A DNA stretch of 36,410 nucleotides from a virus. Shown one piece after another: positions 6,629 through 36,410 of this stretch. Below the pieces are notes generated by a model. It was not told the DNA's origin. It did no database searches and saw only the letters and a program-made list of their open reading frames with translations. The first letter of the stretch is position 1, and every line of letters starts with the position of its first letter. Location of the stretch: IMG/VR virus record IMGVR_UViG_3300015360_000106, positions 1 to 36,410 of that record, one strand, 5' to 3'. The position numbers and the translations under genes were made by a program.

Positions 6629-7939
6629 TTACCATGAATTAGTGTCTCTGTCAAGTACAAATTGACTTAATTTATTGTTTATCTGATCAAATTCCTTAAA
6701 ATGTATAGACAGAAACGGAATCTTATGTTCGTTACAGTAAGACGCTTTGATCTTATCATTTTTCTGAACCATCAATAACGATTTAAGTCCACCAAAATAT
6801 TCTATAGGCTCATAATGCTGCCGTCCTTGATACTCAATCAAACCAAACAACTTCCTGCCTTTAATTATAGCAAAATCAAATGGCAATCGTTTCTTGTTTT
6901 TGCAACCATCTATCTTATATTCTCGCTTGTAATCAATGTTATTTTTGTCTAACCAATCCTTGATTGACTTTTCTCCTTTAGATGAAGCACAAAATGGACA
7001 CTGATCACCTCTTGATCTTGAATCAATTCTACATTCCCATTCATGGGTCAGATCATCAGGACACAAGAACCAAGCTCTTTTGTTTGAAGCATAAGTTACA
7101 TCTCGTGGAGTAAAAGTGTTTTTTGTTGGATGCCATTCTCTTGTAATCACTGGATGAGTTGTTTCTAGGCAATTAGAATTGACAACTTTCCTTTGTTTTC
7201 TGCCGGGGCAACATGGACATCCGGTTTTGTGAAATGTTCTATTCACAATAGTAGCTTTCCATTCATGATCATCAGCTACTGGACATTTCCAGCAAATAAC
7301 AACATGACTTCCAGCAACAACTTCTATAGGATTTATTGAATTTTTAGAAAAATCCCATTCTTTAATTAAATCTGGATGAGTCACTAAAAGCGAATTCTCT
7401 TCACATGTTTTTTGGTTGCTGCAATAAGGACAACCAGTTCCTTTTTCATCTCGTCCGCCTGCTGTTCGATGAGTAAGCGATGCTTGCCACTCATGCCCTT
7501 TACAACACTTCCACCAAACTTTCTTACCTGATCTGCAATGAGCCTCAAATGGATCAAGAGAATTTTTTTCAAAAATCCATTCTTTAAGCAAATCTGGATG
7601 TTGATGTCCGACAGAATCTTCCGGCAGTACCTTCTTGCCTTTGCAGTAAGGACATCCAGCTCCTTGCTGCGTCCTAGAGAATATTCGTGCTTCCCATTTG
7701 TGTCTTGGATCTACAGAACATTTCCACCAAACCTTTTTGGCGGAACTAGGTGTATAATCTGTAAAATCACTTTTGTTTGTTTCAGCGTCAAATTCTTGCT
7801 CAATTTTATTCATGAAATATGTAGTCATGTGATTAAAGAATTTTTTCACATGTTTCCGTTCTTGAATAATTTTACCAAGAACCATGGTCTTGATCAACGT
7901 GATTTCTGTTATTTTGATATTTTTCCCGTGAATTTCCAT
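6629..7939 (-). CDS. Zinc-ribbon and Vsr-like homing endonuclease
   Basis: Up to 436 residues. Four tandem treble-clef/zinc-ribbon units (about residues 70-330) follow the pattern 'KKVWWKC...HEW..R...R....GCPYC', each introduced by a 'HPDL..EW' or similar segment, as in the Pfam probable zinc-ribbon repeat family (PF14311). The C-terminal about 110 residues contain 'FDFAIIKGRKLFGLIEYQGR' and 'KNDKIKASYCNEHKIPFLSI', a Vsr/PD-(D/E)xK-type nuclease core known in phage mobile endonucleases. The start is unclear: the longest frame overlaps the sigma gene by 68 bases. Internal ATGs at 7885 and 7828 reduce or remove the overlap, and none has a good ribosome site. Probably a selfish mobile gene inserted next to the sigma gene. 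Confidence 0.8.
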   Translation of the reverse strand: MEIHGKNIKITEITLIKTMVLGKIIQERKHVKKFFNHMTTYFMNKIEQEFDAETNKSDFTDYTPSSAKKVWWKCSVDPRHKWEARIFSRTQQGAGCPYCKGKKVLPEDSVGHQHPDLLKEWIFEKNSLDPFEAHCRSGKKVWWKCCKGHEWQASLTHRTAGGRDEKGTGCPYCSNQKTCEENSLLVTHPDLIKEWDFSKNSINPIEVVAGSHVVICWKCPVADDHEWKATIVNRTFHKTGCPCCPGRKQRKVVNSNCLETTHPVITREWHPTKNTFTPRDVTYASNKRAWFLCPDDLTHEWECRIDSRSRGDQCPFCASSKGEKSIKDWLDKNNIDYKREYKIDGCKNKKRLPFDFAIIKGRKLFGLIEYQGRQHYEPIEYFGGLKSLLMVQKNDKIKASYCNEHKIPFLSIHFKEFDQINNKLSQFVLDRDTNSW

Positions 7940-22973: not shown

Positions 22974-23043
22974 GATACATGAACTATTCCAATGAGAATT
23001 ACAAAAATTTTTACCCAAACACTTATTAGCATGTTGTACATAA

Positions 23044-23118
23044 TGGCTCAGGTGGGATTCGAACCCACAAGCATCTCTCCTTCTGAGGGAAAGTGGTCTT
23101 CCAGTTGCCTACCGAGCC
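23044..23118 (-). tRNA. tRNA-Leu (anticodon CAG), short variable arm
   Basis: 75 nt. The 7-bp acceptor pairs fully (GGCTCGG with CTGAGCC, one G-U), with A73. Anticodon stem TTTCC/GGAGA around loop CTCAGAA, T arm GTGGG-TTCGAAT-CCCAC. The D arm resembles other Leu tRNAs, but the variable region is only 7 nt where Leu tRNAs normally have a long arm. Confidence 0.8.
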
Positions 23119-23124
23119 AAAATA

Positions 23125-23333
23125 TCGTTTGCTGACTTATGATCAATACCTGCACCCCGACCTTACGCCCGCAAGCGGTAACAAAAGTTACTTATCGAGC
23201 AGCACCTTGTTAGTTAACATAAGTCCTATCAAGGCTATTCAGTTGCAAACGACAAACAAAGATGACGCCTTGTACTTTGGCAAACGTAGGTGACGCCTCT
23301 GAAATAATCGTCAACTTTTTAACGTCTTTGTTT
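23125..23333 (-). ncRNA. Candidate structured RNA between EF-Tu-like gene and tRNA-Leu
   Basis: The 222-base gene-free stretch 23119-23340 contains nested perfect helices. TCGTTTGC 23125-23132 pairs with 23245-23252. GACTTATG 23134-23141 pairs with 23218-23225, enclosing hairpins at 23169-23178 and 23178-23191 that share one base. A second domain pairs 23254-23262 with 23325-23333 (9 bp), and 23263-23267 with 23309-23313. It is probably cotranscribed with the tRNAs on the minus strand. No known RNA family motif was recognised. Confidence 0.5.
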
Positions 23334-23340
23334 AGTTCAA

Positions 23341-24396
23341 TTATTTCATTACTTCAGCAACAACACCAGAACCAACGGTTTTGCCGCCTTCTCGAATTGC
23401 AAATCTACTGCCCACTTCAAGAGCAACAACTTTGCCAAGATTAACTTCCACATCTACTGTGTCACCCGGAACTGCCATTTCTACTCCATTGAGTAAATTT
23501 GCAGAACCAGTTACGTCTGTTGTACGAAAATAAAACTGTGGTCTATATCCATCAAAAAACGGAGTGTGTCGTCCACCATCTTCTTTAGCCAAAACGTAAA
23601 TCTTTGCTTTGAAACGATTGTGCGGTTTAATCGAATCTGGAGTAACAATTACTTGTCCTCTTTCGATGTTTTCGCCTTTCATGCCTCTCAACAAAACTCC
23701 AACATTGTGTCCAGCCAAGCCCTCATCAAGCGGTTTATTAAACATTTCGACGCCTGTAATGACGCTCTCTTGAGTGTCATTCAAACCTACGATTTGAACT
23801 TTATCGCCGACTCGCACACGACCTTGTTCGATCTTTCCCGTGGCAACTGTCCCACGACCTTCAATCTGATGAACACCTTCAATAGCTAACAGAAAAGGTT
23901 TTTCTGTACGACGTTCTGGGACCATTACATAATTGTCCAAAGCATCAAGCAGATCAACAATGCACTTGTTTGCTTCAGCGTCTTTAGGAGTTGCTAAAGC
24001 TGCTTTGGCGTTGCCTCGAATGAATGGCGTTTTTTCTCCATCAAATCCAAATTTTGTAAGAAGCTCACGAACTTCCATTTCAACCAAATCAAGAAGCTCT
24101 GGATCATCAACCAGATCGCACTTGTTTAGAAACACAACTAGAGCCGGAACATCGACTTGGCGAGCCAAGAGAATGTGCTCACGTGTCTGAGGCATAGGTC
24201 CATCAACTGCTGATACCAACAGAATGGCTCCATCCATTTGAGCCGCACCAGTAATCATGTTTTTGATGTAATCGGCATGTCCCGGACAATCGATGTGTGC
24301 GTAGTGACGGTTTTCGCTTTCGTATTCAACGTGCGAAGTGATGATTGTGACTTGTTTTGTTGGGTCACGAACAATTCCGCCTTTTGACACGTCCAT
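23341..24396 (-). CDS. tuf-like: EF-Tu-like protein lacking the P-loop
   Basis: 351 residues from the first ATG. It has EF-Tu G3 'DCPGHADY' (36-43), '[14 protein letters not shown]' and G4 'NKCD' (91-94), then complete domains II and III ending '[10 protein letters not shown]'. The start of the GTPase domain is missing: EF-Tu should carry GHVDHGKTT about 45 residues further upstream. Upstream DNA in the same frame, without a start, still reads '[20 protein letters not shown]' to 24459, where homology stops against an HNH fragment. So the gene is truncated, or is the 3' exon of a split or intron-bearing gene. The '[11 protein letters not shown]' insertion recalls Planctomycetota-type EF-Tu. 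As it stands it should not bind GTP normally. Confidence 0.75.
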
Positions 24397-24459
24397 GTAA
24401 CTCTTGGCAACAGCCAGATTTTTTGTAGCCTGTACTGCCAGAATTGCGGCTGTGATGCA

Positions 24460-24584
24460 TTTCCTGTAAGTTCTGAAAAACCTTTTGATCCGTTATATCC
24501 AATCGTTTGCGTATGACAATTAGGACACAAAAATCTCAAGTTTTCTGGGCTATCATCTAGCCAGTTAGAATTTTTGTGATCCAC
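24460..24584 (-). pseudogene. C-terminal HNH endonuclease fragment fused upstream of EF-Tu
   Basis: 'VDHKNSNWLDDSPENLRFLCPNCHTQT' is the HNH core (DH...N...N...CPNCH) of the same family as the intact gene at 28386. The first half, with the helix-turn-helix and first CxxC, is gone. A stop directly precedes the GTG at 24584, and tRNA-Tyr lies 18 bases upstream. The fragment ends exactly where EF-Tu homology resumes, as expected for a homing-endonuclease or intron remnant. Confidence 0.7.
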
Positions 24585-24602
24585 TTACTTTAAATAAACA
24601 AA

Positions 24603-24684
24603 TGGGGCCGTCAGGAATCGAACCTGTTATCCGCAAGGCACAAGATTTACAGTCTTATTGGTTTCCCACAACACTAGCAACCCC
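24603..24684 (-). tRNA. tRNA-Tyr (GTA), copy 1
   Basis: 82 nt. Acceptor GGGGTTG/CGGCCCC, A73. Anticodon arm TAAGA-CTGTAAA-TCTTG, long variable arm as expected for bacterial Tyr tRNA. The T stem has one A-A mismatch. Confidence 0.85.
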
Positions 24685-24688
24685 ATAT

Positions 24689-24898
24689 TTATACTTCAAC
24701 GAATTCAAGATGTTCTGAAGTTACTTCAAACTTTTTTTTGCCGACTTCTATGACATCCCCAACATGGAAATTATGCTCCACATTAAAGTTTGTTACAATA
24801 AAGCCATTCAGTTTTACCGCACCCATTGTTATCTGCCTACGTCCTTCAGACATACTGACAGTTGCTCGGAGTTTGGACAATAATTTCGTTAATGTCAT
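24689..24898 (-). CDS. Stand-alone S4 RNA-binding domain protein
   Basis: 69 residues from the ATG at 24898; a longer frame runs into the upstream tRNA. 'LTKLLSKLRATVSMSEGRRQITMGAVKLNGFIVTNFNVEHNFHVGDVIEVGKKKFEVT' is a complete S4 domain. The pattern 'S.SE.RR.I..G.VK.NG' plus 'VGDVIEVGKKKF' is closest to the S4 domain at the C-terminus of bacterial tyrosyl-tRNA synthetase. It lies between two tRNA-Tyr genes. A role in binding structured RNA, possibly tRNA-Tyr, is inferred from fold and position. The start has only a weak ribosome site. Confidence 0.8.
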   Translation of the reverse strand: MTLTKLLSKLRATVSMSEGRRQITMGAVKLNGFIVTNFNVEHNFHVGDVIEVGKKKFEVTSEHLEFVEV

Positions 24899-24919
24899 TT
24901 TTCTTATTCTTTTTAAATT

Positions 24920-25001
24920 TGGGTTGGGAGGGATTCGAACCCCCGAACTCGATGAGAATTGATTTACAGTCAACCTGCTTTATCCACTTGCATACCAACC
25001 C
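24920..25001 (-). tRNA. tRNA-Tyr (GTA), copy 2
   Basis: 82 nt. Acceptor GGGTTGG/CCAACCC, A73. Anticodon arm GTTGA-CTGTAAA-TCAAT, long variable arm. It clearly differs in sequence from copy 1, so it is not a recent duplicate. Confidence 0.87.
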
Positions 25002-25007
25002 GAAATT

Positions 25008-25196
25008 TTACCTTTTCAAAAACTCTTTTTCTCTTTTATTGATCTCGGAAATGTATTCGTAAATATCATCTTCCGTTACATCACCTTTATTAAACGACTC
25101 TCCAATTGAAGTGCTCTCAATGATTCCTTTGGAGAAACTTCCATCATCAAGACAATAATCAACAATGATTTCTTTTTGCTCTTTTGTAAGAGGCAT
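25008..25196 (-). CDS. Small acidic helical protein
   Basis: 62 residues from the ATG at 25196, with AGGA ribosome site (a TTG at 25202 is in frame). 'MPLTKEQKEIIVDYCLDDGSFSKGII...' is not recognised. First small gene upstream of the Tyr cluster; its stop is 6 bases before tRNA-Tyr copy 2. Confidence 0.6.
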   Translation of the reverse strand: MPLTKEQKEIIVDYCLDDGSFSKGIIESTSIGESFNKGDVTEDDIYEYISEINKREKEFLKR

Positions 25197-25206
25197 CTTC
25201 AATCCT

Positions 25207-25476
25207 TTACTTAGATTTTACAAAAAGGGAAAAAGAAAAATTGTCGTTTTCTAAATCCCTTATTTCTTCTTTTAAAGAAGCAATGATTTGTGGATCTCCA
25301 TGTTCTTCCGACCATGTCAACACAAACAAATCACGTTCATGTCTTTTTATCATAACATCAGTCATGCCAATTGTCGAGCATCTTTCTTGTCCATTCTTTT
25401 TTGTTTCAGAATGCACCTGACTAAGTTCTTCTTCAGACATAGAAATAACGTCGTTTATTGACAAATACTTTTTCAT
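25207..25476 (-). CDS. Small hypothetical protein
   Basis: 89 residues, unrecognised, rich in Glu and Ser ('MSEEELSQVHSETKKNGQERCSTIGMTDVMIKRHERDLFVLTWSEEHGD'). The ATG overlaps the stop of the preceding 57-residue gene (ATGA), indicating coupling in a small operon. Confidence 0.65.
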   Translation of the reverse strand: MKKYLSINDVISMSEEELSQVHSETKKNGQERCSTIGMTDVMIKRHERDLFVLTWSEEHGDPQIIASLKEEIRDLENDNFSFSLFVKSK

Positions 25477-25646
25477 TCGTTCACGTAGATCTTTCTGATG
25501 AAATACTCTGCAACAGTCGTAACATCTGGATTAGAAATTTCAGATGTTATTCGTGATTCAGCTTCTTGGTAAGTATCGTATCTGTCAATTTCACTTGATC
25601 CACGTTCTGTGCTAGTGATTTCCATCACTAAAAATTTGATTTTCAT
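25473..25646 (-). CDS. 57-residue protein, translationally coupled on both sides
   Basis: Reads 'MKIKFLVMEITSTERGSSEI...YQEAESRITSEISNPDVTTVAEYFIRKIYVNE', a plausible small alpha/beta protein not recognised as a family. Its ATG overlaps the preceding stop (ATGA) and its stop overlaps the next ATG, which argues strongly that it is translated. Confidence 0.6.
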   Translation of the reverse strand: MKIKFLVMEITSTERGSSEIDRYDTYQEAESRITSEISNPDVTTVAEYFIRKIYVNE

Positions 25647-25933
25647 TTTAAGTCATCCTTGCCTTCTTTGAATTTCAGTTTTGACATCAATTCTTGTTTT
25701 GTGTCTTTTCGTTTCGGATATTTGTCCGAGTGACACAAAAAACATCGTGTGTTGCCGCAATCCCAAGCATCTGTTTTTCTGTACCGACCTTTTTGTTCAT
25801 CACATTTACAATCAACTTTATAAGGGTCAACCCCCGGAATTCGATTGTAATTTATATTACTTTCAACATGCGAAAGAAAATGTTTCTTCCATTCCCGATG
25901 AGTTCGGGAATATTCTTGATGCCATCTTTTCAT
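25643..25933 (-). CDS. Small zinc-binding protein, phage type
   Basis: 96 residues with 'VDCKCDEQKGRYRKTDAWDCGNTRCFLCHSDKYPKRKDTKQE'. The Cys spacing CxC...C....CxxCH suggests a zinc knuckle, and I recall the 'KxDAxDCGxxxCxxCHxDK' string from other large phages. Function unknown. AGGAG ribosome site preceded by a strong hairpin. Confidence 0.7.
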   Translation of the reverse strand: MKRWHQEYSRTHREWKKHFLSHVESNINYNRIPGVDPYKVDCKCDEQKGRYRKTDAWDCGNTRCFLCHSDKYPKRKDTKQELMSKLKFKEGKDDLK

Positions 25934-25953
25934 ATAAGACTCCTGTATGGTAG

Positions 25954-26002
25954 GTTGCTCCCACCGCAGCGACCATACATGATCGACACTGCGATGGGCA
26001 AC
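25954..26002 (-). promoter_or_regulatory. Long leader hairpin
   Basis: An imperfect stem pairs 25954-25969 with 25989-26002 (GTTGC..CCCA.CGCAG type, two unpaired bases) around a 19-base loop. It lies in the gap between two minus-strand genes, about 20 bases before the ribosome site of the gene starting at 25933. Probably an RNA processing or stability element. Confidence 0.4.
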
Positions 26003-26019
26003 AACTGATCCAGCAGTCT

Positions 26020-26247
26020 TTATTGAATTTCATTTCCAAACTCCTCAATTTGAAATCTTTTACAACCGTTTTCAAACTCTTGTCTAGTTGGCAAAGCAGG
26101 ATCAACCTGCGATTTCATGTTTAACGCATCTTTCAATTTGTTAAACAGTTCTGGATAATACCAACATCGTTCATGGCCTTGTTTGTCTAACCATTCTTGT
26201 ACAATTGCACGAACACTTTCGAGTTCTTTTTGTTCTTTTTTTGTCAT
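26020..26247 (-). CDS. Small helical protein, phage type
   Basis: 75 residues from the ATG at 26247; a TTG at 26271 would add eight. 'VQEWLDKQGHERCWYYPELFNKLKDALNM' resembles a short protein family I recall from large phages (WL..QGH.RCWYYPE). Function unknown. Confidence 0.6.
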   Translation of the reverse strand: MTKKEQKELESVRAIVQEWLDKQGHERCWYYPELFNKLKDALNMKSQVDPALPTRQEFENGCKRFQIEEFGNEIQ

Positions 26248-26251
26248 GCAC

Positions 26252-26379
26252 TTAGTCTTCTTTAGGATCAAAAAATTTGTTGCAATGAGTACAATGATAC
26301 AAATTGCAATCTTTTTTCACAACAGATTTTTTCTTCCACAAAAAGGACATTTCACTTCGTTTGTATTTTCATTCTTCAT
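26252..26379 (-). pseudogene. Zinc-ribbon mini-gene frameshifted in an A run
   Basis: The ATG at 26379 opens 'MKNENTNEVKCPFCGRKNLL' and stops. One extra A in the six-A run after CPFCGR would give 'CPFCGRKKSVVKKDCNLYHC' continuing 'THCNKFFDPKED' to a stop at 26252, a complete two-CxxC ribbon. So it is a one-base deletion, a sequencing error at a homopolymer, or a slippage-dependent gene. The ATG is only 2 bases from the tRNA-Ser 3' end, with no ribosome site. Confidence 0.55.
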
Positions 26380-26381
26380 AG

Positions 26382-26470
26382 CGGAAGCGACAGGCGTCGA
26401 ACCTGCAAGACGGATTTAACCGCCTGTCTCTTTAGCAAAGAGGTTAGTATAGCCACTTACAATCACTTCC
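26382..26470 (-). tRNA. tRNA-Ser (GCT)
   Basis: 89 nt. Acceptor GGAAGTG/CGCTTCC, G73 as in Ser tRNAs. D stem TGTA/TATA, anticodon arm CCTCT-TTGCTAA-AGAGA, long variable arm, T arm GCAGG-TTCGACG-CCTGT. Confidence 0.87.
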
Positions 26471-26515
26471 AATTTTGTGAGACAAGAATCGAATAGATAC
26501 GTTTTCAGGATTTCT

Positions 26516-26608
26516 CCTGATTGGCGGGATTTGAACCTGCCTCGAAACTAATCTTTCGAAAAGTCGCTTGTGCCTTGATTCTATCCTATTGAATAGCATC
26601 AGCACTTT
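26516..26608 (-). other. Degenerate tRNA-like remnant
   Basis: It has a T-arm-like unit (GCAGG-TTCAAAT-CCCGC, one mismatch). A partial acceptor CTGAT.. could pair with ..ATCAG about 87 nt apart, which is a class II length. No acceptable anticodon arm forms. Probably a decayed Ser- or Leu-type tRNA. Confidence 0.35.
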
Positions 26609-26640
26609 TCCGTCACATTTCCATTCTACATTCTCACAAG

Positions 26641-26713
26641 TAGCGTGTTCTGGTTTCGAACCAGATTCTGTGAATTTTCAGTTCACCGCATTGACCACAA
26701 TTGCTTACACGCT
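26641..26713 (-). tRNA. tRNA-Phe (GAA), copy 1
   Basis: 73 nt. Acceptor AGCGTGT/ACACGCT perfect, A73. D stem GCA/TGC, anticodon arm GTGAA-CTGAAAA-TTCAC perfect, T arm TCTGG-TTCGAAA-CCAGA. Position 8 is A instead of the usual T. Confidence 0.88.
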
Positions 26714-26742
26714 ATTTGGATGGCGTTTCCACCATCCTGATT

Positions 26743-26961
26743 TTATTCAATTACTTTGTATTGAGTTTTTCTGTATCTCTTCCAGCAGTTGTGATTAATA
26801 CAACTCTTTTGTAGATCATCCCATGCCTCAACAAGGTTTCTTAAGTTTCGACTTGCTCGAAGCGAAATTTTGTATTCATCCCAATAGATGAAGTCTTTTT
26901 TTCCGTTGGCACGACGCTCTTGTGTTGTTCTCGGGCGTCTGTGATAGTGACAAGATAACAT
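26743..26961 (-). CDS. Small basic protein, phage type
   Basis: 72 residues, strongly basic: 'MLSCHYHRRPRTTQERRANGKKDFIYW' and 'SCINHNCWKRYRKTQYKVIE'. The CWKR.RKTQYK ending is one I recall from other large phages. GGAGAG ribosome site. Possibly nucleic-acid binding. Confidence 0.65.
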   Translation of the reverse strand: MLSCHYHRRPRTTQERRANGKKDFIYWDEYKISLRASRNLRNLVEAWDDLQKSCINHNCWKRYRKTQYKVIE

Positions 26962-26990
26962 TTCTTTCTCTCCAAAACCGCACTATTGCG

Positions 26991-27020
26991 TTAAGGAAAG
27001 AATTGTTCTCGATATTTCAT
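26991..27020 (-). other. Nine-codon minicistron with ribosome site
   Basis: AGGAG, 3 bases, then ATG followed by eight codons (MKYREQFFP) and TAA, 30 bases before the gene at 26961. It could be a leader peptide for that gene. A CCGC-CGAA-GCGG hairpin lies further upstream near 27067-27079. Confidence 0.3.
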
Positions 27021-27115
27021 CGGCTCCTCATTTCTAGCAGATTATAGATGTATTCCCAAATCGCATTCCGCCGAAGCGGACAAAAAGAAACCTACGCAGT
27101 TTCAAGTTCGAGAAG

Positions 27116-27190
27116 TGGTCAGTCTCGGAGTCGAACCGAGTTCTTATCTTCTTCAGAGATACGCTGAATAACCGTACTAGCTCACTGACC
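27116..27190 (-). tRNA. tRNA-Phe (GAA), copy 2, with G37
   Basis: 75 nt. Acceptor GGTCAGT/ACTGACC, A73. D stem GCT/AGC, anticodon arm TATCT-CTGAAGA-AGATA perfect, T arm CTCGG-TTCGACT-CCGAG. It shares the AGAA variable region with copy 1. Base 37 is G, while bacterial Phe tRNAs normally have A. Confidence 0.85.
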
Positions 27191-27466
27191 AAAATATTTT
27201 AACACTATCGAGACTTTTCCTACTCTCGATTTCCATTGATCTTTTTCCACAATGATATATTCATCATAGTAGAGATCGGTTCTTCCCGACAACCAAATTG
27301 CTGTTAAGCGATGATGGCCGTCTTCAACTTGTATTTCACCATCTTCGCATCGAGCCAGCGTGATTTGTGGCAACACGCCACCCTCACACAATGTTTTAAT
27401 CATAGCTGGAATTTGCCCAGCACGATGCAGATTCCTCTGCGAAAACCAAATCTTTGTGATATCCAT
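27182..27466 (-). CDS. ParB/sulfiredoxin-like small protein
   Basis: 94 residues from the ATG at 27466, with GGAGG ribosome site (an upstream ATG at 27502 is possible). 'GQIPAMIKTLCEGGVLPQITLARCEDGEIQVEDGHHRLTAIWLSGR' has the DGHHR motif of ParB-N-like domains, which bind nucleotide. The stop codon lies inside the acceptor stem of tRNA-Phe copy 2. Confidence 0.75.
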   Translation of the reverse strand: MDITKIWFSQRNLHRAGQIPAMIKTLCEGGVLPQITLARCEDGEIQVEDGHHRLTAIWLSGRTDLYYDEYIIVEKDQWKSRVGKVSIVLKYFGQ

Positions 27467-27498
27467 GAAAACCTCCATAATTGGAGGTCCAAGGACCA

Positions 27499-27738
27499 TC
27501 ACGAATCAAAAATAAAATCATCTAGTAAATTCCTTTTGTGTCTGAAGTCTTCATAGTAACAGTAACCAGACAAAGAACGACTTAACTTCAATTCCTTGAA
27601 ATCAAGATACCAACAACAAGTGCTGATTTTCTTTCCCCAGTGATCACTCCATCGTATCACCTTTTCGTTTTCATGCCAATATGTAGATCCAGTAAAGGAA
27701 ACATAATCAGGATTACTCACATCGAGTGAAATTGGCAA
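27499..27738 (-). CDS. Small hypothetical protein
   Basis: 79 residues with a TTG start at 27738; a GTG six codons later is also possible. 'DYVSFTGSTYWHENEKVIRWSDHWGKKISTCCWYLDF' is Trp- and Tyr-rich and likely a small beta fold. It overlaps the region upstream of the ParB-like gene. Not recognised. Confidence 0.55.
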   Translation of the reverse strand: MPISLDVSNPDYVSFTGSTYWHENEKVIRWSDHWGKKISTCCWYLDFKELKLSRSLSGYCYYEDFRHKRNLLDDFIFDS

Positions 27739-27779
27739 CTGTTTCTATGAAAAAGTTGTCAAAATCATATTTCATCAAG

Positions 27780-27864
27780 CGGAAGACACGGGAGTCGAAC
27801 CCGCTGCCCCCTTTCGGGAGTTACCTGCTTTCCAAGCAAGCCGCTAACCATTCGCATATCTTCC
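27780..27864 (-). tRNA. tRNA-Ser (GGA)
   Basis: 85 nt. Acceptor GGAAGAT/GTCTTCC, G73. Anticodon arm CTTGC-TTGGAAA-GCAGG, long variable arm with its own stem, T arm GCGGG-TTCGACT-CCCGT. Confidence 0.9.
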
Positions 27865-27897
27865 AAATTACAATTTGTTTGAGACTTGCCATTGGTT

Positions 27898-27950
27898 TTA
27901 ACCGCAGGCCAGACTTCGAACCTGTATTAACGCTCCTCCAGTCTCATAGT
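27898..27950 (-). other. Possible tRNA remnant
   Basis: A T-arm-like unit (ACAGG-TTCGAAG-TCTGG) followed by CCTGCGG looks like the 3' end of a tRNA. No matching 5' acceptor half occurs before the neighbouring tRNA-Ser. Probably a decayed tRNA. Confidence 0.3.
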
Positions 27951-27971
27951 TTTTAAGAAGAACAAATTGAG

Positions 27972-28054
27972 CAGAAGACGGAGAACACGAATCCCAACCA
28001 TTGCTGGTCCAACCGCTTTCGAAACGGTGCTGACTCCTCGTCAGTTCATCTTCT
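27972..28054 (-). tRNA. tRNA-Ser (CGA)
   Basis: 83 nt. Acceptor AGAAGAT/GTCTTCT, G73. D stem CTGA/TCAG, anticodon arm ACCGT-TTCGAAA-GCGGT, long variable arm. The T stem is weak and has a mismatch. Confidence 0.82.
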
Positions 28055-28063
28055 ATGGTTTGA

Positions 28064-28291
28064 CTATTTTTCTTTAATCTTATCAATGTATCCTTTATTC
28101 CAAAATGAACGTGATGTTTCATCTCGATAAGGATTCAGGATAGGATTAATCTTTAATGCACCAGCTTCTAGTCCATCTTCATAAGCTTTTTCGTATCTTA
28201 TGGTATGGATTTTATCTAATTTATTAACAAGAGCCGCTACGATAACAACAAACATTGCAACAGCAAGAACCGTAATAAACAAATTTTTCAT
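28064..28291 (-). CDS. Small single-span membrane protein
   Basis: 75 residues. The N-terminal segment 'LFITVLAVAMFVVIVAALV' is a transmembrane span or uncleaved signal anchor. The rest is a charged domain 'YRDETSRSFWNKGYIDKIKEK'. It sits alone between tRNA-Ser and tRNA-Leu. Function unknown. Confidence 0.7.
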   Translation of the reverse strand: MKNLFITVLAVAMFVVIVAALVNKLDKIHTIRYEKAYEDGLEAGALKINPILNPYRDETSRSFWNKGYIDKIKEK

Positions 28292-28317
28292 TGAATGCTT
28301 TCTTTAAAAATAGTAAG

Positions 28318-28400
28318 TGTCCAAGAGAGGAGTCGAACCTCCACGCCATTACTGGCGGCAGGCCCTCGACCTACTGCGGCTACCGTTACGCCACTTGGAC
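28318..28400 (-). tRNA. tRNA-Leu (GAG), with C33
   Basis: 83 nt. Acceptor GTCCAAG/CTTGGAC, A73. D stem GGC/GCC, anticodon stem GTAGG/CCTGC around TCGAGGG, long variable arm with CGCCA/TGGCG stem, T arm GGAGG-TTCGACT-CCTCT. Base 33 is C instead of the near-universal U. Confidence 0.8.
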
Positions 28401-28925
28401 TTTTTCTTTTAGTCTTCTCAATCTTAAATATTTGGCATTTGAGATAATATCTGTTCCAGAATCTTCTCCCATTGTTGCTTGGCTGTGACAATTTGGACAG
28501 AGAAATTCCAAATTGTCAGCTTCATTATTCAGCCAATTCTCGTCTTTATGATTGACCTGTAATCTCAATTCTTTTCCGTTCCACGATCCTTTATTTTCAC
28601 AATGTTCGCATTTGTATTCTACGCCGCATTCAATTAACGCTCGTCTCAGCCTATAGGCAACTTGCCGTCTATTGGTGTCTGGCATTAATACTAGCACATC
28701 TGACCAGTGCTTTTTCTTTGATCCTTTGTGTTTTTCTCCACAGTTTGCTGCTTGTCCAAGAAAGTGAGATGTGTCAATTTCATAGATTTTGATCCATCTT
28801 TTGATATTCTGTTGTTGACCACCAGACCATTTTATTCCAAGTTTTCTAATCACTTCTGCAAGCGATATACTTTCTTTAATAATTGGTTCTAATAATTCTT
28901 TTGTGTATTTGGTAGACTTGCTCAT
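28386..28925 (-). CDS. HNH endonuclease, intact
   Basis: 179 residues. The N-terminal part 'YTKELLEPIIKESISLAEVIRKLGIKWSGGQQQNIKRWIKIYEIDTSHFLGQ' is a DNA-binding helix-turn-helix typical of mobile HNH genes. After it come 'YKCEHCENKGSWNGKELRLQVNHKDENWLNNEADNLEFLCPNCHSQ', the HNH core with two CxxC zinc pairs. Probably a free-standing homing endonuclease. The C-terminus runs 15 bases into the downstream tRNA-Leu, so the last residues are encoded by the tRNA acceptor. Confidence 0.88.
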   Translation of the reverse strand: MSKSTKYTKELLEPIIKESISLAEVIRKLGIKWSGGQQQNIKRWIKIYEIDTSHFLGQAANCGEKHKGSKKKHWSDVLVLMPDTNRRQVAYRLRRALIECGVEYKCEHCENKGSWNGKELRLQVNHKDENWLNNEADNLEFLCPNCHSQATMGEDSGTDIISNAKYLRLRRLKEKVQVA

Positions 28926-28956
28926 ATTTTAACATAGTGTGTCTGCCAAATATTTA

Positions 28957-29040
28957 TCTCGCTGGAGGGACTCGAACCCTCAATCCTCTAGGGCATCGAA
29001 TTTTAAGTTCGACGTGTATCTCCATTTCCACCACAACGAG
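28957..29040 (-). tRNA. tRNA-Leu (TAA)
   Basis: 84 nt. Acceptor CTCGTTG/CAGCGAG, A73. Anticodon arm TCGAA-CTTAAAA-TTCGA perfect, long variable arm, T arm GAGGG-TTCGAGT-CCCTC. Confidence 0.88.
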
Positions 29041-29079
29041 TTATACTAAATTGAATTAAATTGTTAAAGATCAAAAAAG

Positions 29080-29167
29080 CGGATAACAGAGGTGCCGACC
29101 CCCAAGCCATTCGCATGGCTCCAACCGCTTTCAAGGCGGTGCTTACAGCCGTGTAAGTTTATTATCC
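29080..29167 (-). tRNA. tRNA-Ser (TGA), odd T loop
   Basis: 88 nt. Acceptor GGATAAT/GTTATCC, G73. D stem CTTA/TAAG, anticodon arm ACCGC-CTTGAAA-GCGGT perfect, long variable arm. The T loop reads GTCGGCA instead of TTCRANY, so folding or modification may be impaired. Confidence 0.8.
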
Positions 29168-29175
29168 AAAATTTG

Positions 29176-29432
29176 TATTACATCGAGGGATTCAAACCGT
29201 TCCAAAAAACCTAAGTAATTTGGTTTACTAGGACAAACTAAGTTTTCTGATATTTGGAAAACTTATTTTAATGTTTGCCTTGCGTGGCCTTGCGGCAAGG
29301 CTCCTATCCCTTATTCATAAGAACTCAGGGATTACTTATGTTTTAATTAAATTTAACCTTATTGGAATCAACAAAATGTTGTCTTGGTTAGTATTTCAAT
29401 CTAGGGAATGACCCATACCAACTAAATGTAAT
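29176..29432 (-). ncRNA. Candidate structured RNA with tRNA-like ends
   Basis: About 257 nt filling the gap between tRNA-Ser and tRNA-Leu. Ends pair as a 7-bp acceptor-like helix (29426-29432 with 29177-29183) plus an A at 29176. A T-loop-like GGTTTGAATCC lies just before the 3' end. Inside: 29415-29422 with 29387-29394 (8 bp), hairpin 29369-29381, 29331-29337 with 29213-29219 (7 bp), hairpins 29306-29332, 29287-29301 and 29240-29264. It could be an intron-bearing or decayed tRNA or a new tRNA-capped RNA. It lacks a recognisable tmRNA tag or G3-U70 pair. Confidence 0.5.
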
Positions 29433-29436
29433 ACAG

Positions 29437-29511
29437 TAGCATCGGTGGGACTCGAACCCACAAGCATCTCTCATTTTGAGTGAAAGTGGTCTGCCAATTG
29501 CCTACGATGCC
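29437..29511 (-). tRNA. tRNA-Leu (CAA), short variable arm
   Basis: 75 nt. Acceptor GGCATCG/CGATGCT with one G-U, A73. Anticodon arm TTTCA-CTCAAAA-TGAGA. Same D arm, 7-nt variable region and T arm as the Leu(CAG) gene at 23044. Confidence 0.82.
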
Positions 29512-29623
29512 AAAAATTGTACCATGTCAAAAGATTCGAACTTTTGAACTCAATATGCACCTGTGATTATATTGGATTCGAACCAATCATATTGAACTAT
29601 TATCCCAACGAAACACAATACAG
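29512..29623 (-). other. Two T-arm-like fragments between Leu tRNAs
   Basis: Two perfect T-arm units occur (ATTGG-TTCGAAT-CCAAT and CAAAAG-TTCGAAT-CTTTTG), but there are only about 35 nt upstream of the first. The upstream part forms TTGGG-ATAATAG-TTCAA. They may be decayed tRNAs or a D-armless mini-tRNA. Confidence 0.3.
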
Positions 29624-29698
29624 TAGCACGGGTGGGACTCGAACCCACAAGCATCTCAGATTCTAAGTCTAAGTGGTCTGCCAATTGCCTACCGTGCT
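29624..29698 (-). tRNA. tRNA-Leu (TAG), short variable arm, first of the array
   Basis: 75 nt. Acceptor AGCACGG/CCGTGCT perfect, A73. Anticodon arm TTAGA-CTTAGAA-TCTGA, 7-nt variable region, T arm GTGGG-TTCGAGT-CCCAC. A weak promoter-like TTGAAT-N18-TAAATT lies just upstream on the minus strand (about 29712-29741). Confidence 0.85.
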
Positions 29699-34721: not shown

Positions 34722-36395
34722 ATGTCGGTTAAAGCACTACAAGATTATACGTTCGTCAGCAAATACGCTCGCTACTTGCCTGAACAAAAGAGAAGAGAAA
34801 CATGGGTAGAAGCAGTAGATCGAGTTCGTGATATGCACATCAGGCGATATCCTCAAATCAAGCAGGACATCACTTGGGCGTTTGAACAAGTTAAGCAACG
34901 CAAGGTTCTTGGCTCTCAGAGAGCTTTACAATTTGGCGGTCAACCAATCGAAAAGAAAAATGCAAGAATCTACAATTGTATAAGTTCGTATTGCGATAGG
35001 TTGAGATTCTTCCAAGAGTGCTTCTGGCTACTGTTGTGTGGTTGCGGGACTGGCTTCTCTGTACAGAAGCATCACATTGCAAAATTGCCAAATTTTAATT
35101 CTATTTTGCTGGAAAAGAAATTTCTAACAAAGAAAGTATATGTTATTCCAGACTCTATTGAAGGCTGGTCTGACTCTCTCGGAGTTTTATTAAGTGCATA
35201 TTTTGAAGATGGAGAGTTTTCAGAATACTATGGAACAGAAGTTATTTTTGATTGCAGTTTGATTCGTCAAGAAGGTGCTTTGTTGGGTTCATCATCTGGG
35301 AAAGCTCCGGGTCCAAAGCCATTGATGAGAGCACTGGAAAAGATTCGTAATATTCTTGACAAATGTGTTGCCGATGAACAGAAGTCACTTCGTCCAATTG
35401 ACGCATACGACATTATAATGCACGCATCTGATGCAGTTTTGTCTGGCGGAGTTAGACGATCAGCCACTATTTGCCTGTTCTCTCCAGACGATGAAGAAAT
35501 GGCTACTGCCAAAATTGGAAATTGGTTCATTGACAATCCTCAGCGTGGTCGATCAAACAATTCTGCTATTCTTTTACGTGGAAAAACCACTAAAGAACAG
35601 TTTGAAAAACTGATGGGATATGTTCGTGAATTTGGAGAACCCGGATTCGTTTGGTCAGATTCTTTAGAAATTCTTTTCAATCCTTGTGTTGAAATTTCGC
35701 TCTACGGATATGATATCGAAACTGGTTTGAGTGGATGGCAATGTTGCAATTTGTGTGAAATTAACGGGAAAAAATGTCATACTTTGGATGATTGGATTAT
35801 CGCCGCAAAAGCAGCGGCTATCATTGGAACATGTCAGGCTGGATATTCAGATTTAACATACCTTGGCCCTGTATCAAAGAAAATCATTGAACGAGAGGCA
35901 TTATTGGGGGTCAGCATTACAGGCGTGATGGACAACCCAGAAATTTTACTTGATCCTGAAAAACAACGATTTGTTGCTCAATTAGTTTTAGATGTTAATG
36001 AAGAATTCGCTGCTAAAATAGGGATAAACCCTGCTGCTCGTGCAACATGTTTGAAGCCTGCTGGATGTCTTGAATTCAACACAAAAATAAAAACATCTGA
36101 AGGCTCATTTACACTTTTGGAAATATTTGAAGACCAAGGATATTCGTTTGATGAAATTAAAAACATGAATAAAGAATGGCTGGAATTAAAAAAACCTCTT
36201 TTGATTTTAAACGAAAACAATGAAATAGAAAATGTTACAAGATTGTATGTAAATGGAGAAATTCAAACTTATGAAATACCATTGGATGATGGATCTGTTG
36301 TCAAATGCACACCTTGGCACAAGTTTAAATTAACTGATGAAACTTGGAAAAGAGCAGACGAACTAAGCGAAGGTGATGATATCCTCTCTTATTAG
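34722..36395 (+). CDS. nrdJ: Class II (B12) ribonucleotide reductase, N-terminal part with intein N-half
   Basis: 557 residues. Residues 1-448 match adenosylcobalamin-dependent ribonucleotide reductase: 'ARIYNCISSYC' (first redox Cys), 'GCGTGFSVQKHHI', 'SDAVLSGGVRRSATICLFSPDDEEM', 'GEPGFVW', 'NPCVEISLYG' (likely thiyl-radical Cys), 'GVSITGVMDNPEIL', ending at 'ARATCLKPAG'. At residue 449 the sequence switches to an intein N-terminus 'CLEFNTKIKTSEGSFTLLEIF', with block B 'DDGSVVKCTPWHKF'. It stops after 'WKRADELSEGDDILSY'. No homing endonuclease domain or C-terminal intein block follows before the stop, so protein splicing must occur in trans with a second gene. AAAGGAAC ribosome site. Confidence 0.9.
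   Translation: MSVKALQDYTFVSKYARYLPEQKRRETWVEAVDRVRDMHIRRYPQIKQDITWAFEQVKQRKVLGSQRALQFGGQPIEKKNARIYNCISSYCDRLRFFQECFWLLLCGCGTGFSVQKHHIAKLPNFNSILLEKKFLTKKVYVIPDSIEGWSDSLGVLLSAYFEDGEFSEYYGTEVIFDCSLIRQEGALLGSSSGKAPGPKPLMRALEKIRNILDKCVADEQKSLRPIDAYDIIMHASDAVLSGGVRRSATICLFSPDDEEMATAKIGNWFIDNPQRGRSNNSAILLRGKTTKEQFEKLMGYVREFGEPGFVWSDSLEILFNPCVEISLYGYDIETGLSGWQCCNLCEINGKKCHTLDDWIIAAKAAAIIGTCQAGYSDLTYLGPVSKKIIEREALLGVSITGVMDNPEILLDPEKQRFVAQLVLDVNEEFAAKIGINPAARATCLKPAGCLEFNTKIKTSEGSFTLLEIFEDQGYSFDEIKNMNKEWLELKKPLLILNENNEIENVTRLYVNGEIQTYEIPLDDGSVVKCTPWHKFKLTDETWKRADELSEGDDILSY
36066..36392 (+). other. N-terminal half of a probable split intein
   Basis: 109 residues from Cys449 of the reductase. It has the block A Cys1, block B TxxH ('TPWH'), and terminates at the point where known split inteins (gp41-1, NrdJ-1) are divided, with a closely similar ending (RADELxxxDxLxxx in NrdJ-1, from memory). 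The insertion lies in the conserved 'LKPxG(T/N)' active-site strand. Confidence 0.8.
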
Positions 36396-36410
36396 ATTTA
36401 TTTGAAAAAC

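What the first reader, a model, noticed from the sequence alone, without database searches (positions are those of the whole stretch)
36066..36395. Fractured class II ribonucleotide reductase with a naturally split intein N-half
The reductase frame is complete up to 'CLKPAG', then reads into an intein with Cys1 and the TxxH block and stops after 109 residues, the usual split site. Natural trans-splicing inteins are few and valued for speed; NrdJ and gp41-1 types were found in marine phage metagenomes (Dassa et al. type 'fractured genes'). The C-intein plus C-extein should be encoded within the next few kb, often with a homing endonuclease between. A Vsr-like endonuclease of the kind linked to fractured genes is in this same genome (6629).
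Basis: partly seen in the sequence, partly recalled or inferred. Interest (0 to 1): 0.85.

Follow-up and report, generated by a model that had tools for sequence, protein, structure and literature searches.

The report
Split-intein half in phage ribonucleotide reductase
A phage's DNA-precursor enzyme is encoded in two pieces that should be spliced together as proteins by a split intein; a relative carrying the identical piece supplies the missing half and a homing-type nuclease gene between, so this is a good new example of a known kind of mobile element.

Summary
Window 34722-36395 encodes the N-part of a class II (RTPR-type) ribonucleotide reductase, then a 109-residue N-intein (36066-36392) with Cys1 and TPWH, then TAG. 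The record is an IMG/VR fragment that ends 15 nt later, so the C-half is not in it. A related phage (L002, 65,971 bp) carries the same cassette, 345/345 nt identical to the end of the window, although the flanking reductase is only 82% identical in protein. There the cassette continues with a 19-bp perfect hairpin, a Vsr-like endonuclease gene, and a C-intein ending HN|T joined to the rest of the reductase. Our contig stops 2 nt into that hairpin.

The site (KPxG^T loop) is empty in most relatives. I found 33 distinct split alleles there, in RTPR and NrdJ reductases; class I NrdA of a Klebsiella phage has one too. Fourteen have a Vsr-like endonuclease in the break, 3 GIY-YIG, 2 HNH and 14 none. 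Fifteen of 18 endonuclease leaders fold into strong hairpins.

Verdict: a real, naturally split intein of the fractured-gene kind, at a site different from NrdJ-1, recently mobile. It is a new member of a known kind. Splicing itself is untested.

The parts
34722..36065 (+). N-extein: N-terminal 448 residues of a class II (RTPR-type) ribonucleotide reductase, ending ...ATCLKPAG; includes the NPCVEI active-site motif
   Evidence: TIGR02505 E 6.7e-41; PF21995 E 2e-10; 82% protein identity to L002 N-extein
36066..36392 (+). N-intein (109 aa), Cys1, block B TPWH, ending at the usual split site ...SEGDDILSY
   Evidence: TIGR01445 26.5 bits; model best match native Npu DnaE split N-intein 4qfq; 345/345 nt identical to L002 10001-10345
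36393..36395 (+). TAG stop of the N-half; same stop in L002, next in-frame stop 8 codons on
   Evidence: TAG is an ordinary stop here (window genes TAA 17, TGA 6, TAG 6)
36409..36410 (+). First two bases of the 5' arm of a 19-bp perfect inverted repeat (leader of the endonuclease gene); the rest lies beyond the contig and is known only from L002 10344-10386
   Evidence: continuation in this genome is inferred

Best explanation
This is the N-terminal gene of a 'fractured' reductase carried by a mobile split-intein cassette. The reductase is translated as two proteins: N-extein + N-intein (seen here) and C-intein + C-extein (seen in the relative L002, inferred here). The intein halves associate, Cys1 and the C-terminal His-Asn carry out trans-splicing, and the Gly of KPAG is joined to the Thr that opens the C-extein, restoring the KPAGTTS substrate-binding loop. 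Between the halves lies a Vsr-like homing endonuclease gene (seen in L002), which would cut intein-free alleles at the same loop and spread the whole cassette by repair. Its mRNA leader folds into a strong hairpin that probably restricts endonuclease translation. Shown: N-half, stop, identical cassette in a diverged phage, C-half and endonuclease in that phage, empty sites in relatives, hairpin sequence. Inferred: the C-half in this genome, splicing, cutting, and hairpin control.
For: N-intein by profile and fold. L002 gives the full order N-intein, stop, hairpin, 363-aa ORF (348 aa from ATG 10393), C-intein 'IKVTNKPILSKDKCLTLDIETEKTHTYQLANGVISHN|TTSCILG'. 345/345 nt identity in the cassette against roughly 60-65% ungapped identity in the 225 nt before it, last mismatch 4 nt before the insertion point: what recent homing leaves. 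The two records share only three bases upstream of the point, so an assembler misjoin exactly there is unlikely. Empty alleles KP[AES]G-T/S in 152 of 160 site hits in a first survey. 33 distinct split alleles at the same site. The endonuclease profile matches Vsr and I-Bth0305I by sequence (E 3e-4) and by fold. 15 of 18 endonuclease leaders fold with z below -2 against 2 of 68 control stretches.
Against: No C-half or endonuclease is in this record. In L002 the C-half has no ATG: the aligned start is ATT (AAGGAGG six bases before it), where nearly all relatives have ATG, so that allele, and perhaps this one, may be poorly expressed or decaying. No splicing or cleavage data.
Confidence: 0.88

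Rival explanations
1. Decaying or non-splicing remnant: the cassette inserted but the C-half is no longer properly made (ATT start), so the reductase is inactive and the phage relies on the host's enzyme.
For: ATT in place of the ATG found in nearly all homologues; the window's own C-half is unseen.
Against: The N-extein and N-intein are open, keep every residue invariant across 26 N-halves, and L002's C-half keeps block F/G residues, HN and Thr+1 behind a strong ribosome-binding site. ATT is a rare but real start codon.
Confidence: 0.08
2. Gene in pieces without splicing: the two proteins assemble non-covalently into a working reductase, as reported for a phage NrdA split by a homing endonuclease.
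For: A reductase split by a homing endonuclease that works as two peptides is known (Friedrich 2007, cited in PMC10448857).
Against: Here both halves carry complete intein ends with all catalytic residues, conserved over the alleles aligned; the published genes-in-pieces case has no intein (own knowledge).
Confidence: 0.02
3. Artefact: a contiguous intein cut by a sequencing error, or an assembly chimera at a contig end.
For: The element lies at the very end of the contig.
Against: Same stop in a second record; TAA eight codons after it; upstream flanks share only GGA at the junction, so a misjoin exactly at the intein border is unlikely; the contig ends at the start of a perfect 19-bp hairpin, a natural break point for sequencing or assembly.
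Confidence: 0.02

Closest known systems
Fractured genes with split inteins and Vsr-related endonucleases (Dassa et al. 2009, NAR 37:2560; paper not held, content from memory and from PMC3653736)
   Same: Conserved DNA-metabolism enzyme broken in two by a split intein, free-standing Vsr-like endonuclease in the break, phage origin; reductases among the targets (7 nrdA, 2 nrdJ in ocean data, per PMC3653736).
   Different: Whether this very site was among their loci could not be checked. Here an unchanged cassette is seen in two diverged genomes, and many alleles at the site carry other endonucleases or none.
NrdJ-1 split intein
   Same: Natural split intein of a phage class II reductase; detectable profile relative (8ubs, E 4e-6).
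   Different: NrdJ-1 lies at NPC^SEI with Ser+1 (PMC13123727); this one lies at KPAG^T with Thr+1. The relative L003 carries split inteins at both regions plus a third, giving a reductase in four pieces.
Npu DnaE split intein (N-half)
   Same: Best solved fold match of the N-half (4qfq, TM 0.68-0.73).
   Different: Different host protein, no endonuclease, 25% identity.
I-Bth0305I / Vsr endonuclease
   Same: Catalytic domain of the linked endonuclease in L002 (3r3p, 1vsr, 1cw0).
   Different: Preceded by about 4-8 'KYG' repeats (probable DNA binding); sits between intein halves rather than in a group I intron or as a repair enzyme.
I-TevI-type hairpin control of phage homing endonucleases (own knowledge)
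   Same: Hairpin just before the endonuclease start, in several alleles covering a ribosome-binding site; four leaders hold TATAAATA.
   Different: The late-promoter motif is not clearly enriched (4 seen, 1.3 expected, shuffle maximum 5) and is absent from L002.

Membership tests
Intein (N-terminal splicing domain) | Block A with Cys/Ser/Ala at position 1 and block B TxxH | tested here: met
   C1 and T82-P-W-H85; TIGR01445 above cut-off; C1 and H85 invariant in 26 homologues
Intein (N-terminal splicing domain) | HINT fold | tested here: met
   Model pLDDT 91.7; top matches all inteins
Naturally split intein / fractured gene | N-half ends in a stop at the canonical split site | tested here: met
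   109 aa then TAG; same in L002; other alleles 107-122 aa
Naturally split intein / fractured gene | Separate gene with C-intein ending HN and C/S/T +1, fused to the rest of the same enzyme, in this genome | not testable with these tools
   Contig ends 15 nt after the stop. Met in L002 and L003
Naturally split intein / fractured gene | Free-standing endonuclease gene between the halves | tested here: inconclusive
   Not reached in the window; present in L002 with the identical cassette; absent in L003
Naturally split intein / fractured gene | Protein trans-splicing | not testable with these tools
   Needs expression of both halves
Vsr-like (EDxHD) homing endonuclease, L002 ORF | Sequence and fold match to Vsr / I-Bth0305I catalytic domain | tested here: met
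   Profile E 3.3e-4 to 4.4e-4; Foldseek top hits 3r3p and 1cw0, prob 1.00 though E about 0.01; PF04480 above cut-off
Class II RNR (RTPR type) | Full-length match to TIGR02505 above cut-off | tested here: inconclusive
   Fragment scores 140 bits against a full-length cut-off of 340; best family by far
NrdJ-1 split intein allele | Insertion at NPC^S | tested here: not met
   Inserted at KPAG^T; the window's own NPCVEI motif is uninterrupted

The most novel reading that the evidence does not exclude
The KPxG^T loop of ribonucleotide reductases hosts one old, mobile lineage of naturally split inteins that spans RTPR, NrdJ and class I NrdA, stays split, and works as a landing pad: Vsr-like, GIY-YIG and HNH endonucleases come and go in the same break, most behind an mRNA hairpin that times their production. 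The window holds an allele that has just moved between two diverged phages.
Probability: 0.45. Interest if true: 0.62.

Novelty: new member of a known kind. Interest (0 to 1): 0.5.

Why it matters
Fast natural split inteins are few and in demand. This site supplies at least 33 distinct natural pairs with Thr (two with Ser) at +1, where the literature states that most characterised ultrafast split inteins need Cys (PMC13123727). The window/L002 pair also shows what recent homing of a split-intein cassette looks like at single-base resolution, and the pairs of alleles with and without an endonuclease make endonuclease gain and loss in split inteins testable.

Tried and rejected
Searching the window for the C-half or the L002 endonuclease: none. 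Circular genome with the C-half at the other end: no end repeats and no match. TAG read as sense: rejected, since TAG ends several genes and TAA follows eight codons on. The Vsr-like gene at 6629 as the partner endonuclease: a different architecture, and the partner is a different ORF in L002. Distant scan of genome contigs: the profile was too variable for the tool. Late-promoter enrichment in the leaders: not significant (4 vs 1.3 expected). Fold search of the endonuclease gave no hit below E 0.001; the Vsr call leans on the profile search too. In one search rows marked 'CONTIG len~-62/-64' are a script artefact (negative slice); only L092 and L246 are contiguous. The set of 33 alleles was gathered with motif filters that ask for separate halves, so it does not measure how common split alleles are against contiguous ones. 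The intein tree is a quick one with few strongly supported branches and was used only to see endonuclease types scattered. The Dassa 2009 paper is not held, so overlap with its loci is unchecked.

Full report
Observation. The ORF 34722-36395 encodes 448 residues of an adenosylcobalamin-dependent reductase (TIGR02505 E 6.7e-41; PF21995 E 2e-10) followed without a break by 109 residues of N-intein (TIGR01445 26.5 bits, cut-off 24.5) and TAG. A model of the intein part (pLDDT 91.7) matches the native Npu DnaE split N-half best among solved structures. The record is a 36,410-base virus fragment, without end repeats, and it ends 15 nt after the stop.

The missing half. A scan of IMG/VR with the intein part returned two records. 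L002 (IMGVR_UViG_3300020195_000410, 65,971 bp) has the same cassette: 345 of 345 bases identical to the end of the window, while the 225 bases before it are roughly 60-65% identical without gaps and the N-exteins are 82% identical in protein. The last mismatch is 4 nt before the insertion point. The upstream flanks share only GGA at the junction, so an assembly misjoin is improbable. In L002 the cassette continues with a 19-bp perfect inverted repeat, an ORF of 363 aa (348 from ATG 10393), then a C-intein with AAGGAGG six bases before an ATT start, ending SHN, followed by TTSCILGTASG and the rest of the reductase. The window stops 2 nt into that inverted repeat, which may be why the contig ends. 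Cassette GC is 30-32% against 40-48% in the exteins.

The site. In relatives without the element the loop reads KP[AES]G-T/S; 152 of 160 hits of a first survey were empty. From the distant scans I extracted 33 distinct alleles with separate N- and C-halves at this point. They lie in RTPR and in NrdJ reductases (TIGR02504 E 7e-111 for LR756500). A Klebsiella phage class I NrdA is broken at the matching loop with an ORF between, and a Campylobacter phage NrdA has a contiguous mini-intein there. From own knowledge this is the loop that binds the substrate phosphates. Two relatives are contiguous: L092, with a large unlike intein, and L246, in which N- and C-halves of the split type are fused in frame.

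The endonucleases. Of the 33 alleles, 14 have a Vsr-like ORF with KYG repeats, 3 GIY-YIG, 2 HNH and 14 none. The Vsr-like profile matches Vsr and I-Bth0305I by sequence (E 3e-4) and fold. Close allele pairs differ in the endonuclease: L250 (GIY-YIG) and L233 (none) have 92% identical inteins, and the 72-nt gap of L233 still encodes a tail (ISIEQFLIENKQFKKGRLK, read from the DNA printed) like the end of the L250 enzyme (ISVEQFLLENTQFAKGRLR). That is a trace of endonuclease loss. Intein identity often exceeds extein identity, e.g. 89% against 49% for L237/L240, so movement is not confined to the window's allele.

Leader hairpins. The first 100 nt after the N-half stop fold with z below -2 in 15 of 18 endonuclease-bearing alleles, against 2 of 68 control stretches inside the same gaps; endonuclease-free gaps show 1 of 7. 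In L176 and L241 the 3' arm holds the whole GGAGG or AGGAGG; in L002 it holds AGGT of AGGTGG, just before ATG 10393. This resembles the hairpin control of T4 I-TevI (own knowledge). The late-promoter motif is not significantly enriched.

Mechanism and limits. Best reading: two proteins, trans-splicing at KPAG^T, a homing endonuclease in the break that spreads the cassette. Splicing, cutting and hairpin control are inferred. The C-half of this genome is inferred from the identical cassette. The ATT start in L002 leaves a small chance that the allele is decaying.

Against the known. This is the fractured-gene kind of Dassa et al. 2009 (not held; content from memory, and 7 nrdA + 2 nrdJ in ocean data from PMC3653736). 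It is not the NrdJ-1 allele, which sits at NPC^SEI (PMC13123727). L003 shows how far this goes: three split inteins break one reductase into four genes. I file the window as a new member of a known kind; the site-wide pattern is the more interesting part, and its novelty is not fully checked.

Noticed in passing
window 23341-24396 (-): Elongation factor Tu gene lacking its first ~57 residues, including the GTP-binding P-loop (TIGR00485 positions 59-394, 552 bits), downstream of a tRNA-Tyr with an HNH-like frame between. The INPHARED matches listed are mostly host-like or unannotated records.
   Followed up: partly
window 23043-29698 (-): Eleven tRNA genes, all for Leu (5 anticodons), Ser, Tyr or Phe; an odd, narrow set.
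   Followed up: no
window 6629-7939 (-): Free-standing endonuclease-like protein: four DUF4379 treble-clef repeats and a Vsr-like C-terminus; not the partner of the split intein.
   Followed up: partly
L003 7358-11485: One reductase broken into four ORFs by three split inteins, none with an endonuclease-sized gap.
   Followed up: partly
L002 11435: C-half of the split reductase appears to start at ATT behind AAGGAGG; nearly all homologues start at ATG.
   Followed up: partly
L233 5079-5150 versus L250 5202-5958: Remnant of a GIY-YIG endonuclease tail in an allele that has lost the gene.
   Followed up: yes
LR756500.1 255701-262033 (L169): Unannotated 462-kb phage genome with a full fractured NrdJ: N-intein, Vsr-like endonuclease, C-intein.
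   Followed up: yes
OM654377.1 (L170) 1160-1340: Phage KLEP7 reductase is interrupted near the NPC motif by what looks like a group I intron rather than an intein.
   Followed up: no
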